A stretch of DNA of 64,000 nt from Paenibacillus sp. JZ16 (lineage in GTDB: Bacteria > Bacillota > Bacilli > Paenibacillales > Paenibacillaceae), in NCBI RefSeq assembly GCF_015326965.1, contig NZ_CP017659.1:4840001-4904000 (forward strand), in the 5' to 3' direction. Of the stretch, positions 44,941 to 48,861 are shown one piece after another; position 1 is the stretch's first letter, and every line of letters starts with the position of its first letter. The notes under the pieces were generated by a model. It made no database searches. It was given only the letters and a program-made list of their open reading frames with translations, and had not been told where the DNA came from. The position numbers were made by a program, and so were the translations under genes.

Positions 44941-44967
44941 TGTCACAGGCAGTATGGCTCATTTGTC
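44941..44967 (+). promoter_or_regulatory. ECF41-type promoter of the sigma factor gene (autoregulation)
   Basis: TGTCACA (44941-44947), 16 bases, TGTC (44964-44967). The reported ECF41 target promoters have TGTCACA at -35 and CGTC at -10. The identical arrangement precedes the CMD gene on the other strand. The start would be about 50 bases before the ATG at 45023. Confidence 0.7.
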
Positions 44968-45022
44968 TTATAAGTGGTGTAGCTTTCATGCCGAAAATAT
45001 ACAGAGTAAGAAGGTGTGTCTG

Positions 45023-45922
45023 ATGTTATTGGATCAAATCTATACCGAATACAAGCCGATGATGTTCGGCCTGGCTTACCGGATGCTGGGGAGTGCAGCG
45101 GATGCGGAGGACATCGTACAGGATGTTTTTTCCCAATTCGTGCAGATGGATCGGGGAGAAGTGCTGAACGAGAAAGCGTATTTGGCCAAAATGACAACGA
45201 ACCGCTGCATCAACCTGTTGAAATCGTCCAGACGCCAGCGCGAGACGTATACCGGTCCCTGGCTCCCGGAGCCGATGCCGGATTATGACATGCTGACGCG
45301 GTCCGATCCTGCGGAACGCCGCGAAACGATTGGTTACGCCTACCTCGTGCTGCTTCAGCGGTTAACGCCGCTGGAGCGTGCCATTTATATCGCCAAGGAT
45401 ACGCTGGGTCTTGAATACCCGATCATAGCGGAGATGCTTGGAAAGACGGAGATCAGCTGCCGCAAAACCTTCAGCCGTGCCAAGCAGAAAATGGGCCAGG
45501 CCACGGAAAGGGCTAATGGAGAAACCGCCCGGACGGAAACGCAGGAACGCTTCGTTGAAGCATTCCTGCGGGCGTCCGATATGGGCAATTTTAAGCCGCT
45601 GCTGTCTTTTTTGAAGGAAGAGGTTACGCTGCTATCGGATGGCGGCGGCAAAGCGAAGGCTGCCATTAATCCGATACTGGGCGTGGAACGGGTACGTGCG
45701 TTTTTCGAGGGGTTGTCTGCCAAAGGCTCGTTCCGAGAAGGCTTTGAGCCTGTTTCCGTAAACGGAGAGCCCGGCTTATTGCTGAAGCGGGACGGCAGGG
45801 TCTCCATGGTGCTAACGGTAGAGTGGGAACCCGACTTATCCCGCATCAGCCAGATTTTCCTTGTGGTGAATCCGGATAAATTGCAGCTATTTAATCAAAA
45901 CAGCCCGGGAACAGCCCTGTAG
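45023..45922 (+). CDS. ECF41-family RNA polymerase sigma factor with SnoaL-like C-terminal domain
   Basis: This 299-residue protein has sigma regions 2 (about 5-70; DAEDIVQDVFSQF) and 4 (about 105-165), then a C-terminal regulatory domain. All three ECF41 signatures are visible: WLPEP near 80, DGGGK and NPDKL near the end. In this group the fused extension replaces an anti-sigma factor. The ATG at 45023 follows GAAGG. The last 32 bases overlap the 3' end of the convergent CMD-like gene, the usual genomic partner of ECF41. Confidence 0.92.
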   Translation: MLLDQIYTEYKPMMFGLAYRMLGSAADAEDIVQDVFSQFVQMDRGEVLNEKAYLAKMTTNRCINLLKSSRRQRETYTGPWLPEPMPDYDMLTRSDPAERRETIGYAYLVLLQRLTPLERAIYIAKDTLGLEYPIIAEMLGKTEISCRKTFSRAKQKMGQATERANGETARTETQERFVEAFLRASDMGNFKPLLSFLKEEVTLLSDGGGKAKAAINPILGVERVRAFFEGLSAKGSFREGFEPVSVNGEPGLLLKRDGRVSMVLTVEWEPDLSRISQIFLVVNPDKLQLFNQNSPGTAL

Positions 45923-46337
45923 CGACACCGATCCGGTTCCAGGCATTGATCGTTGTGATCGCCATGACCAAATCGACGAATTGTTTCTCGTCAAAATGCT
46001 TGCGGACGCGTTCGTATACCTCTACAGGAACGCCAGCCTCGGACAGCTTGGTCACGCACTCCGTCAGTTCGATGACAGCCCGTTCTTCGTCTGAATATAT
46101 CGGGACTTCGCGCCACATGGGCAGAAGGAGGAGGCGGTCCACGCTTTCGCCCATGGAGAGCAGATCCTTGGAATGCATATCCACGCAGAAGGAGCAGCCG
46201 TTGATCTGGGATGCCCTGAGCTTAATGATCTCGTACAGCTTGTGATCGAGTCCGCTTTTTTGGGCCGCTTGCTCCAGGGCAAGCAGGGTTTTGAAGGCTT
46301 CGGGATTGGCTGATCGGTAATTCATTCGCAGTTCCAT
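45891..46337 (-). CDS. carboxymuconolactone decarboxylase/AhpD-like protein
   Basis: This 148-residue helical protein has CSFCVDMHSKD near 48-58, the CxxC plus His redox site of AhpD-type members. It starts behind AAGGGGAA. ECF41 sigma factors are typically linked to a CMD, oxidoreductase or epimerase gene whose promoter they read; here the gene is convergent with the sigma gene and has a matching upstream promoter. It probably acts in peroxide or electrophile detoxification, but its substrate is not known. Confidence 0.9.
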   Translation of the reverse strand: MELRMNYRSANPEAFKTLLALEQAAQKSGLDHKLYEIIKLRASQINGCSFCVDMHSKDLLSMGESVDRLLLLPMWREVPIYSDEERAVIELTECVTKLSEAGVPVEVYERVRKHFDEKQFVDLVMAITTINAWNRIGVATGLFPGCFD

Positions 46338-46380
46338 GTTCAGTTCCCCTTTACGTATTATTTTGGATGTTCACCCATAT

Positions 46381-46407
46381 GACAGTTAGCCGTGCAGAAT
46401 TGTGACA
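46381..46407 (-). promoter_or_regulatory. ECF41-type promoter of the CMD-like gene
   Basis: On the minus strand TGTCACA (46401-46407), 16 bases, TGTC (46381-46384). It is the same pattern and spacing as in front of the sigma gene; the start would be about 35 bases before the ATG. Confidence 0.7.
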
Positions 46408-46427: not shown

Positions 46428-46532
46428 AGAAACCCTCAAAAGGTGGAGAACGGAAGACAGAAAAAGGAATGGCGCTTCTTGGCAGAAGCGCCATTCCGGG
46501 TACTGTTTATGTCCATCCAGAGGGTTTCTTTT
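46428..46532 (-). terminator. nested double terminator of the sigma/anti-sigma operon
   Basis: An inner hairpin (46466-46497, GGAATGGCGCTTCT over TGGC) has a perfect 14-bp stem and a minus-strand TTTTTC run. It sits inside an outer 10-bp stem AGAAACCCTC/GAGGGTTTCT (46428-46437 and 46520-46529) that is followed on the minus strand by another T-rich run. It ends just short of the CMD promoter. Confidence 0.8.
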
Positions 46533-46551: not shown

Positions 46552-48201
46552 TTATTTTCCGGCCTTAAGCGGAACGCGCAGGACATCGTCCCGTTTATGG
46601 GTGGTATAGTTCCAAGCGTAAATGTTGAGCTCGGTCTTGTCGAAATTCTCATACACGTCCATATGTTTATTGTTGTCATCGCCGAGCAGGCCGATCATGG
46701 CCGGCATGCCATAATTTCGGTCTTCACCGTCAAGATAATAGGTTTGGTTGACGCCGCCGAACGTCGGGTCGGAGCTGAAGGATTCCACATAGAGATTATT
46801 GTCCTTCATGTAATAGGTCCATGTGATCGGATAACCTGCAATGTTGGACGTTAAGCTTTGATGCTCAGCTGAGATGCCGGTCAAGCGGATTGGATTCTTG
46901 TCTCCGGCATGTTCATCAACGCGGTGCTTGGCGATCAGGGACACCGGCTGGTTCGCCAGGGAGGCCGCATTCAGTCCGGCCATTTCAAAGCGCAGCTCCG
47001 TTGTTCTGGGTTGCCCCTGAACAAACCACATACCTCCGTCCAACAGCGTCCCGCCTACATCCAGTTGATAATTCATGTAAGGAACACGGGTATACTTTTC
47101 TTCATGGGTCAGGATCAGCCTTACTTGGGTCGGCGTAACAATCATTTCATGGACTTTTGTTCCTCCAGGAACTTGATCAACAGGGATATTCAGCGCTTCT
47201 TTAAATGTGCCGTTGTCCATTTGCTTCTTGGACAAGGCCATATTTAAGCTCCAAGTACCCTCTGCGGTTTCAAGCGTGCGATCGTAAGCAAGCTGGAACC
47301 TCGTTCCCTCAGAACGTAGGGAGTCAGACTTGAATACTTGCTGGCTCAGGTATTCTCCGGAGGCTGCCGGGGTTCCAAAAGTAGGGGGTTTAACCTCCTT
47401 AATCATCTCTTTCTTGTCATCGATCGCCTGAATTCGTACCCAGCTTCTGCTATTCATTTCGGGATCCATAAATGTAATGGCCGATTGGAGCAGGACATTT
47501 CCTTCGGCTTGTTCGAAAGATTGCAGGGTTACGCTGTCGATGCCATCCTTCTGAATAGGGAATACCTGTGTATTTTGATCGTTAGGGTCGTAGTTGATGG
47601 ACTGTATTCCATCGCCGGTAAAGTGGATATTCTCCATGGCAAACTCAATATCCGCCGATTGGCCGTCAGCCACCCAATCGGTCTCAAAATACCCCTGGAA
47701 TACGCCTGCATCCGCGTTCCACTGATGGGAATAATGGCCCTCGATAGAGTTCCCTTCCTTATCTTTAAGTCCAATATGATCAAAGGCTACTTGCTCGCCA
47801 GCTCGTGATGAACCTGGATCCAGACTGTAGAGCAGGAACGTTCGGTTCTCATCGATAAACGCCGTGTGCACTGTTAAGGTTATGCCATCCTTTGTAACGG
47901 ATTGCTCAATCGTCTGGCCAAGCCCCTGCTCCAATGCAGTCTGGATACCGGCCCTGTAAGACAGGAGATTGGACCAATCATAGTTCAGGGCTGCATAGAC
48001 CGGCGTTGCCATCAAGGCGACGGATATCCCGGTAATGATTGCAATCCGCTTTCGTTTTCGCGGACGAAGCGGAATCGATTCACCTCCGGCCACCTTCAGT
48101 TCATTGTGCTGGATACTGCTCCACATCCGGTCAAAATCAGGATAAGACACGTTATTCGCCGTTTTCATCTGGTTTTTCAAATTGCCCTCAAAACGTTCCA
48201 A
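46552..48201 (-). CDS. DUF4179-type membrane anti-sigma factor
   Basis: This 549-residue protein starts at TTG behind GAAGGGAG. A cytoplasmic N-terminus (about 1-50) that should bind the sigma factor is followed by one transmembrane helix (RIAIITGISVALMATPVYAAL) and a large extracellular part: DUF4179 (about 70-260, with GITLTVHTAFIDENRTFLLYSL in pieces) and DUF5643-like beta-rich domains. It overlaps the sigma gene by 14 bases. The stimulus is not evident. Confidence 0.88.
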   Translation of the reverse strand: MERFEGNLKNQMKTANNVSYPDFDRMWSSIQHNELKVAGGESIPLRPRKRKRIAIITGISVALMATPVYAALNYDWSNLLSYRAGIQTALEQGLGQTIEQSVTKDGITLTVHTAFIDENRTFLLYSLDPGSSRAGEQVAFDHIGLKDKEGNSIEGHYSHQWNADAGVFQGYFETDWVADGQSADIEFAMENIHFTGDGIQSINYDPNDQNTQVFPIQKDGIDSVTLQSFEQAEGNVLLQSAITFMDPEMNSRSWVRIQAIDDKKEMIKEVKPPTFGTPAASGEYLSQQVFKSDSLRSEGTRFQLAYDRTLETAEGTWSLNMALSKKQMDNGTFKEALNIPVDQVPGGTKVHEMIVTPTQVRLILTHEEKYTRVPYMNYQLDVGGTLLDGGMWFVQGQPRTTELRFEMAGLNAASLANQPVSLIAKHRVDEHAGDKNPIRLTGISAEHQSLTSNIAGYPITWTYYMKDNNLYVESFSSDPTFGGVNQTYYLDGEDRNYGMPAMIGLLGDDNNKHMDVYENFDKTELNIYAWNYTTHKRDDVLRVPLKAGK

Positions 48202-48721
48202 ATTGGTTCTCTCCCTTCAGCCAGAAGCCGTTATGGTGTTCAAGTTTTTTGCGCATGATTTTCAATGCTTTGTGAAGCCTTGATTTAACCGTCCCGACGG
48301 GAATCTTCAGCGTTTCGGCGATTTCCGCCAACGACAGTTCACCGATATAGCGGAGCGTGACAACCGCCATCAGCTTGTCCGGAAGCTGCCGCAGCAGTTT
48401 CTCCCATTCCGCCGCTGCTGCCTTTTCCAATACGATGGTATCTACGGATTTAACCGATGCCGTGGTCTGCTCGTGGAGCCACTCGACCTGGCTTTGCTTG
48501 TCTCGCTGGGTCTGATTCCTTCTAAGCAGGTTCAAGCAATGATTCATCGCGATGCGCATGATCCAGGCGCGCGTATGTTCAACGTTTCTCCAATCCTGGC
48601 GAAATACAGTGACGAATACATCGTGGCAGAGGTCTTCCGCATCTTGGGCGTTCCGCAGCATATAGTAGCAGGTGCGGTACACATCCTTGTTATAAGAATC
48701 GAATAACTCGCGTTCCGTCAA
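48188..48721 (-). CDS. ECF-type RNA polymerase sigma factor (partner of the DUF4179 protein)
   Basis: This 177-residue protein has region 2 (DAEDLCHDVFVTVFRQDWRN) and region 4 (LAEIAETLKIPVGTVKSRLHKALKIM). A TTG at 48721 is chosen because AAAGGAG lies 9 bases upstream and the sequence begins with a typical sigma start (LTERELFDSYNKDV); the ATG at 48838 has no ribosome-binding site. It is translationally coupled to the anti-sigma gene. It is the intact counterpart of the decayed pair at 41688. Confidence 0.9.
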   Translation of the reverse strand: MTERELFDSYNKDVYRTCYYMLRNAQDAEDLCHDVFVTVFRQDWRNVEHTRAWIMRIAMNHCLNLLRRNQTQRDKQSQVEWLHEQTTASVKSVDTIVLEKAAAAEWEKLLRQLPDKLMAVVTLRYIGELSLAEIAETLKIPVGTVKSRLHKALKIMRKKLEHHNGFWLKGENQFGTF

Positions 48722-48861
48722 TCCGAGGCACTCCTTTCTTCGCGTTATGTCTAATAAACAAATGACTCTAGGAAAGGGTTCATCTTTTTTTGCTCTCTTA
48801 AGCAACGAAGGCCTGAGTCCTTCTCTGTAACGGTTCATGATTTAATTGATTTCATTCTAAC

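What the first reader, a model, noticed from the sequence alone, without database searches (positions are those of the whole stretch)
44941..46407. ECF41 sigma factor and CMD partner, each with TGTCACA-N16-TGTC
The sigma factor keeps all ECF41 marks (WLPEP, DGGGK, NPDKL). Identical -35 elements, identical 16-base spacing and identical -10 elements precede both its own gene and the convergent CMD-like gene. This defines a two-promoter self-contained regulon. The -10 is TGTC rather than the reported CGTC, so this sigma may have a slightly shifted specificity. The 32-base 3' overlap of the genes adds possible antisense control.
Basis: partly seen in the sequence, partly recalled or inferred. Interest (0 to 1): 0.72.

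Follow-up and report, generated by a model that had tools for sequence, protein, structure and literature searches.

The report
ECF41 sigma factor with dispersed regulon
A soil bacterium's self-regulating gene switch and its redox-enzyme partner carry matching on-signals; one amino acid of the switch tracks one DNA letter of the signal in related switches, and that letter points to a further, distant target gene.

Summary
Observation correct. In a Paenibacillus lautus-group genome an ECF41 sigma gene (45023-45922 +) and a convergent CMD/AhpD-like gene (45891-46337 -) are each preceded by TGTCACA-N16-TGTC. In the ten orthologous loci aligned, GTCACA, N16 and TGTC are invariant at both promoters.

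TGTC fits a relation found here: sigma residue 64 (region 2.4; aligns with Mtb SigH N92, which contacts the neighbouring base pair) is Asn where the -10 begins with T and Asp where it begins with C. This held in 87 of 87 scorable genus loci, then at all 75 strict sites with N or D in later loci from other genera and phyla (159 of 159 loci). Looser sites gave 5 misfits of 32, and there are only 7 switches, so shared ancestry is not excluded.

The 'self-contained two-promoter regulon' is probably wrong: the same site precedes an unlinked azoreductase-like gene at 28.4 kb, is kept in relatives, and that gene sometimes sits beside an Asn64 ECF41 sigma. Of eight ECF41/SigJ-like sigmas in the genome only the window's has Asn49 and Asn64. 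Nothing is shown experimentally. A general ECF specificity code is published but not held, so novelty of the Asn/Asp rule is unverified.

The parts
44941..44967 (+). Promoter of the sigma gene: -35 TGTCACA (44941-44947), 16-base spacer, -10 TGTC (44964-44967); 55 bases before ATG 45023
   Evidence: GTCACA/N16/TGTC in 10 of 10 orthologous loci
45023..45922 (+). ECF41 sigma factor, 299 aa: sigma2, sigma4 and C-terminal extension
   Evidence: Pfam PF04542 and PF08281; WLPEP, DGGGK, NPDKL; best fold match SigJ 5xe7 from a weak model
45167..45169 (+). Codon of Asn49 (aligns near the Mtb SigH specificity-loop residue N77, by my reading of the alignment); tracks the last base of the -10 imperfectly
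   Evidence: SigH loop described in PMC6411747
45212..45214 (+). Codon of Asn64 (region 2.4; SigH N92 equivalent); tracks the first base of the -10
   Evidence: mapping from the SigR alignment and the residue labels in PMC6411747
45260..45274 (+). WLPEP linker motif
45638..45652 (+). DGGGK motif of the C-terminal extension
45869..45883 (+). NPDKL motif of the C-terminal extension
45891..46337 (-). CMD/AhpD-like protein, 148 aa, with CxxCxxxH (C48, C51, H55; 46173-46196)
   Evidence: PF02627 67.9 bits, cut-off 23; TIGR00778 57.3 bits, cut-off 27.8; residues read
45891..45922 (.). 32-base 3' overlap of the two genes
46381..46407 (-). Promoter of CMD: TGTCACA-N16-TGTC, 43 bases before the ATG
   Evidence: GTCACA/N16/TGTC in 10 of 10 orthologous loci
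46466..46497 (-). Terminator-like hairpin that would separate CMD from the upstream same-strand gene 46552-48201
   Evidence: 1 found in the region; 2.2 expected in shuffles, so weak

Best explanation
The window sigma is an ECF41 factor of the 'Asn64' type. When its C-terminal NTF2/SnoaL-like extension releases it (mechanism taken from studied ECF41 proteins, not shown here), it directs RNA polymerase to TGTCACA-N16-TGTC. It thereby raises its own gene and the convergent CMD/AhpD-like redox protein, and most likely also an unlinked FMN-azoreductase-like gene at 28.4 kb of the contig. Asn64 in region 2.4 goes with T at the first -10 position, where Asp64 goes with C; this would keep its promoters apart from those of the Asp64 paralogues in the same genome. 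Shown: sequences, conservation, covariation. Inferred: binding, direction of regulation, base contact, function of the enzymes.
For: Two-promoter conservation. -10 type sorts by sigma clade: 8 changes on the tree of the genus set against a shuffled mean of 41.2, 0 of 200 as low. Residue 64 versus first base: 87 of 87 loci in the genus, 1.00 bit against 0.78 for the next best column; outside the genus and on plasmids, 58 of 58 strict sites with D have C and 17 of 17 with N have T; 159 of 159 loci together, 7 changes of each trait on a tree built without column 64, and 5 of 5 independent supported pairs agree. Azoreductase-like gene: exact TGTCACA-N16-TGTC before 12 of 27 genus homologues; the other 15 have no site even with one -35 mismatch; 9 of the 18 new loci outside the genus, out of 49 matches listed there; all 21 are TGTC. 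In G021, G047 and G067 that gene lies directly upstream of an Asn64 ECF41 gene, likewise L344 outside the genus. In the own genome a CMD-azoreductase pair lies opposite another SigJ-like sigma. CMD orthologues of 73% identity or more occur in 11 genomes, the same 11 that have the window-type sigma.
Against: No expression data. Three divergent loci (L179, L181, L194) have Asp64 sigmas whose own gene is preceded by TGTC although the partner has CGTT. In G021, G047 and G067 the unlinked CMD relative keeps TGTCACA-N16 but -10 is AGTC, AGTC and GGTC, not TGTC. Looser sites in the 31 later loci without a strict site gave 5 misfits among 32 with N or D: L240, L255, L266 (two) and L286. Only 7 switches on the tree; the sign test on 5 pairs gives p 0.0625. 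The genus labels passed hand-set filters. Wecke 2012 found single targets in two species.
Confidence: 0.68

Rival explanations
1. Classic ECF41 local regulon: the sigma controls only CMD and itself; the azoreductase site is used by another factor or not at all.
For: Wecke 2012 (sections 20, 21 and 25 and passages read) reports the neighbouring COE gene as the only detectable target in two species. The genome pattern count is near expectation.
Against: The azoreductase site is exact in 21 loci of the family, 34-82 bases before the start codon; in four loci the gene is linked to an Asn64 ECF41 sigma.
Confidence: 0.2
2. Cross-talk: the ECF41 paralogues of this genome share targets, and the -10 difference has little effect in vivo.
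For: Most share TGTCACA-N16, with -35 variants at two loci; Wecke's logo is one motif for the whole group. Three loci of the genus carry two -10 types.
Against: The -10 letters are held within sigma clades over many species, and residue 64 agrees with the first letter in all 159 N/D loci with a single scored first base.
Confidence: 0.25
3. The Asn64-T / Asp64-C relation is clade history, not recognition.
For: Only 7 switches on the tree; sign test p 0.0625 on 5 supported pairs; many other columns also carry clade signal.
Against: Residue 64 is the single best column in the genus set and in the set tested later (0.75 of 0.753 bits against 0.46 for the next). Its Mtb SigH equivalent N92 contacts the base pair next to the varying one (PMC6411747, sections 10 and 11 read).
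Confidence: 0.2
4. The two sites are chance matches and both genes use other promoters.
For: Sigma-70-like sites exist nearby (4 found, 2.2 expected).
Against: 0.12 expected in the window and invariance of GTCACA, N16 and TGTC in 10 of 10 loci at both promoters while spacers differ.
Confidence: 0.03

Closest known systems
ECF41 of Bacillus licheniformis (Ecf41Bli and ydfG), Wecke 2012, PMC3426412
   Same: ECF41 group, CMD partner, -35 TGTCACA, 16-base spacer, -10 beginning with T (TGTT)
   Different: Here convergent, promoters before both genes, -10 TGTC, and a likely unlinked third target. Residue 64 of Ecf41Bli was not read
ECF41 of Rhodobacter sphaeroides (Ecf41Rsp and RSP_0606), PMC3426412
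   Same: CMD partner, -35 TGTCACA
   Different: -10 CGTC. Residue 64 was not read
Convergent >ECF> <COE< loci in Wecke's Table 4
   Same: Gene arrangement (9 of 373 there)
   Different: There 3 had a promoter before ECF and 4 before COE, and 'usually only either'; here both, in all 10 orthologous loci aligned
M. tuberculosis SigJ (5xe7)
   Same: Best sequence and fold match
   Different: Asp at the position of Asn64
Azospirillum brasilense RpoE10, an ECF41 factor said to control motility and lateral flagella (seen only as a mention and a reference title in PMC8999054)
   Same: An ECF41 factor credited with targets beyond a neighbouring COE gene
   Different: Other targets; paper itself not read
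General ECF promoter-specificity code (Todor 2020 PNAS; not held, known only from passages of PMC8103513 and PMC10880074)
   Same: Predicts ECF promoters from residues in sigma2 and sigma4
   Different: Whether it already contains the Asn/Asp-T/C pair could not be checked

Membership tests
ECF41 | sigma2 and sigma4, as in group 4 factors | tested here: met
   PF04542 46.4 bits (cut-off 24), PF08281 39.2 bits (cut-off 25.7)
ECF41 | WLPEP motif in the linker | tested here: met
ECF41 | SnoaL/NTF2-like fold of the extension | tested here: inconclusive
   No Pfam SnoaL_2 hit; fold matches to SigJ, SigG1 and NTF2-like proteins, but the model is weak, mean pLDDT 67.7, pTM 0.45
ECF41 | Promoter TGTCACA, spacer 16 +/- 1, -10 of the kind reported (consensus CGTC; TGTT mapped in B. 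licheniformis) | tested here: met
   -35 and spacer exact; -10 is TGTC, not the consensus but inside the reported range
ECF41 | COE gene next to the sigma gene | tested here: met
   CMD, PF02627
ECF41 | NCBIfam SigX4 / SigJ model cut-offs | tested here: not met
   TIGR02957 303.3 bits against 323.25; PRK09636 261.1 against 271. These are annotation cut-offs, not a definition of ECF41
ECF41 | Activity controlled by the C-terminal extension | not testable with these tools
   Needs expression of truncated forms
AhpD-like CMD proteins | CMD domain with CxxC | tested here: met
FMN-dependent NADH-azoreductases (unlinked gene) | Flavodoxin_2 domain and the NCBIfam azoreductase model cut-off | tested here: inconclusive
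   PF02525 142.1 bits, cut-off 27; PRK13556 115.2 bits, below its cut-off of 188

The most novel reading that the evidence does not exclude
In genomes with many ECF41 paralogues the factors are kept apart, and sometimes wired in series, by the -10 letters: residue 64 sets the first (Asn-T, Asp-C) and the specificity loop around residue 49 largely sets the last. The window sigma runs a dispersed redox regulon (itself, CMD, azoreductase). In three genomes of the genus an Asp64 ECF41 gene carries a TGTC promoter while its partner has CGTT, and each of these genomes also has an Asn64 sigma, so one ECF41 factor would switch on another.
Probability: 0.45. Interest if true: 0.72.

Novelty: new variant of a known kind. 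Interest (0 to 1): 0.58.

Why it matters
ECF41 is a widely distributed ECF group whose signals are unknown and which was described as controlling one neighbouring gene (Wecke 2012). A one-residue, one-base relation gives a direct two-by-two test of ECF promoter choice, lets targets be assigned to particular paralogues from sequence, and points to targets away from the sigma gene that neighbourhood analysis misses.

Tried and rejected
Genome-wide pattern as evidence by itself: rejected, 6 exact copies against about 3.5 expected. The other three own-genome copies: 486288 lies upstream of a DedA-like ORF (name by recall from its sequence) and nothing like it is among the exact matches in nine relatives; 2836794 is inside an ORF; 4710819 is a palindromic element near an ABC transporter gene.

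Last -10 base and residue 49: near-complete in the genus (N-C 51 of 52, E with T or G 25 of 25) but weaker outside (N-C 30 of 34, E-T 15 of 16, D-C 6 of 8), so kept as a secondary lead.

B. licheniformis test: its published ydfG promoter was sought in the genus of G149, a guess at the right genus (7 genomes), to read that sigma's residue 64; no match, so Ecf41Bli and Ecf41Rsp remain untested.

Structure model: weak, used only for fold class.

Rows and sites dropped: of 97 genus loci, 4 had no promoter assigned, 3 had mixed -10 types and 3 had short or interrupted sigma translations (L043, L143, L144), leaving 87. The genus labels used hand-set filters: first base C or T, last base C or T (5 CGTG loci were added from a looser scan), and selected one-mismatch -35 forms. 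Sites so dropped include TTTCACA with TGTT near L129 and L135, TGTCATA with TGTT at L175, and an exact TGTCACA-N16-TGTT near L048 that precedes a different ECF-type gene. The later scan accepted any first base; 31 of its 105 loci had no strict site. Loci were a part of the matches: 80 of 127 non-orthologous loci outside the own genome (paralogue-rich genomes first, then down the list), 89 of the matches outside the genus, and 16 of 60 plasmid hits listed (420 records matched).

Not in print: the listings (titles and starts of abstracts of the held library) announce no Asn/Asp rule for ECF41 and no azoreductase target; the paper most likely to hold the rule (Todor 2020) is not held.

Full report
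What is there. The window is a stretch of a 7.42 Mb single-contig genome. Its sigma protein is 98% identical to one of Paenibacillus lautus NBRC 15380, so the organism is in or near that species group; 'the genus' below is the tool's code g1, taken to be Paenibacillus. The sigma gene is best read from ATG 45023 (299 aa); the CMD gene is 45891-46337 on the other strand; they overlap by 32 bases at their 3' ends. Both are preceded by TGTCACA-N16-TGTC, 55 and 43 bases before their start codons.

Is it more than chance. In shuffles of the window 0.12 matches of the looser pattern are expected and 2 are seen. More telling, a search of 100 genomes of the genus found the sigma orthologue at E below 1e-90 in 10, own genome included. 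Aligning the upstream regions of these 10 loci shows GTCACA, the 16-base spacer and TGTC in 10 of 10 at both promoters. The first -35 base varies (TGTCACA in 8 of 10 and 6 of 10) and spacers differ. An eleventh genome, G010, has a more distant copy (61%) with both exact sites. CMD orthologues of 73% identity or more occur in 11 genomes, the same 11; the next CMD is at 59%.

What was already known. Wecke and colleagues (PMC3426412; sections 20, 21 and 25 and passages read) described ECF41, its WLPEP and C-terminal motifs, the CMD, oxidoreductase or epimerase (COE) partners, and TGTCACA-n16-CGTC, with mapped -10 elements 'TGTT or CGTC'. Both genes often carry the promoter in divergent loci. Convergent loci were 9 of 373, with a promoter before ECF in 3 and before COE in 4. 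So the locus is an ECF41 member in a rare arrangement, with a -10 inside the reported range. Passages of PMC8999054 and PMC7730460 describe the C-terminal extension as inhibitory through the linker motif; PMC8999054 also names an ECF41 factor of Azospirillum credited with motility genes, so targets beyond a neighbour have been claimed.

Paralogues. The own genome has eight ECF41 or SigJ-like sigmas, one of them split. At their loci I find -10 TGTC (window), CGTC (658 kb twice, once with a 17-base spacer; 693 kb with -35 TGTCACG; 4050 kb), CGTT (885 kb, -35 TGTTACA), TGTT (1085 kb) and CGTG (1324 kb); none was assigned for 4297 kb.

The -10 letters follow the sigma. I read 97 ECF41 loci of the genus (10 orthologues, 7 others of the own genome, 80 of 127 further loci); 93 were given a promoter under hand-set filters: TGTC 38, CGTT 26, CGTC 19, CGTG 5, TGTT 2, mixed 3. 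On a sigma tree the five single types need 8 changes, against 41.2 in shuffles. Comparing every alignment column with the first -10 base, residue 64 separates them completely: Asn with T in 40 of 40, Asp with C in 47 of 47. With that rule in hand I scored 105 further loci: 89 from other genera of the class and 16 from plasmids of Actinomycetota and Pseudomonadota. Sites counted had exact TGTCACA and N16, any first base allowed: D-C 58, N-T 17, E-C 2, S-C 1, no exception among N and D. Two of the Asn-T loci are actinobacterial (L289 Streptomyces lavendulae, L293 Tsukamurella). Thirty-one loci had no strict site. With looser sites they gave 21 D-C, 6 N-T, 1 E-C and 5 misfits: L240 (D; TTTCACA, TGTT), L255 (D; exact TGTCACA but -10 AGAC, before a 443-aa ORF at the usual partner distance), L266 (D; TTTCACA with GGTC and TGTCCCA with TGTT) and L286 (N; CGTCACA with CGTC, 1.4 kb away on the other strand). 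L255 in particular may be a real departure. Among loci with a single scored first base, 159 of 159 with N or D agree. On a tree without column 64 each trait changes 7 times, and 5 of 5 independent pairs on supported branches agree, too few for p below 0.05.

Why residue 64 makes sense. Mtb SigH opens its promoter with N88; N92 hydrogen-bonds the template base of the -11 G:C pair; the specificity loop with T76 and N77 reads -9 (PMC6411747, sections 10 and 11). The window's N60-R-C-I-N64 aligns with the matching N-T-F-I-N of a SigR structure, and SigW and SigJ have Asp at the second position. The varying base is one step upstream of the contacted pair. Asp accepting a hydrogen bond from cytosine, and Asn suiting T:A, is my inference.

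A third target. Of six exact TGTCACA-N16-TGTC sites in the genome, one (28398) is 36 bases before a Flavodoxin_2, azoreductase-like gene. Of 27 homologues in the genus (E up to 1e-50, 21 of 100 genomes), 12 have the exact site 35-44 bases before the start and the other 15 have none. The 12 genomes all have an Asn64 ECF41 sigma: the window orthologue in seven, a CMD-linked one in G065 and G001, an azoreductase-linked one in G021, G047 and G067. Outside the genus 9 of 18 new loci (of 49 matches listed) have the exact site, 8 with no WLPEP-like frame within 1.5 kb and one beside an Asn64 sigma; whether the 8 genomes have an Asn64 sigma was not searched. In the own genome only the window sigma has Asn at both 49 and 64; the 1085 kb sigma has Glu49 and Asn64 with TGTT, the other intact ones Asp64, the split one Asp by its N-terminal piece. 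A CMD gene overlapping an azoreductase-like gene, facing a SigJ-like sigma at 658 kb, links the two enzymes.

Results against. In G021, G047 and G067 the CMD relative (57-59%) is unlinked and has TGTCACA-N16 with AGTC, AGTC and GGTC: the reciprocal arrangement is there, but the first base is not T. In L179, L181 and L194 the Asp64 sigma gene has TGTC while its partner has CGTT; each genome also has an Asn64 sigma (L180, L182, L196), which suggests a cascade but can also be read as a failure of the rule.

How it likely works. Signal unknown; the C-terminal extension releases the sigma (from studied ECF41 proteins); holoenzyme starts at the TGTC promoters; the sigma itself, a thiol-type CMD protein and a flavin reductase are made. 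No terminator-like element was found between the convergent genes, so antisense overlap is possible; nothing here tests it.

Verdict. Observation confirmed; interpretation partly supported; an ECF41 member with TGTC promoters that fit its Asn64, and a regulon that probably reaches beyond the locus.

Noticed in passing
G000:C1:4710819-4710845 (L052): Palindromic element (arms TGTCA / TGACA) about 86 bases before an ABC-transporter ATPase-like gene; near-identical copies are among the exact matches in 7 of the 9 relatives searched, twice in two of them. Looks like an operator or repeat rather than an ECF promoter.
   Followed up: partly
G000:C1:693704-694559 (L043): ECF41 sigma read in two frames (split gene) behind a FAD oxidoreductase-like frame; promoter TGTCACG-N16-CGTC still present.
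   Followed up: partly
L179, L181, L194: Divergent ECF41 loci in which the Asp64 sigma gene has TGTC and the partner CGTT; a possible sigma-to-sigma cascade.
   Followed up: partly
L312, L313, L314 (G067, G047, G021): Unlinked CMD genes with TGTCACA-N16 and -10 GGTC, AGTC and AGTC.
   Followed up: partly
L048 (G000:C1:4293500-4302500), site at locus 2735 (-): Exact TGTCACA-N16-TGTT 31 bases before a 192-aa ORF that looks like an ordinary ECF sigma; TGTT would fit the Asn64/Glu49 sigma at 1085 kb.
   Followed up: no
window 48188-48838 (-) and 46552-48201 (-): A separate ECF-type sigma gene next to a long ORF on the same strand, beside the ECF41 locus.
   Followed up: no
G000:C1:4297656-4298291 (L048): SigJ-like sigma with a sub-cut-off SnoaL_2 match, Asp64, and no ECF41 promoter assigned.
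   Followed up: no
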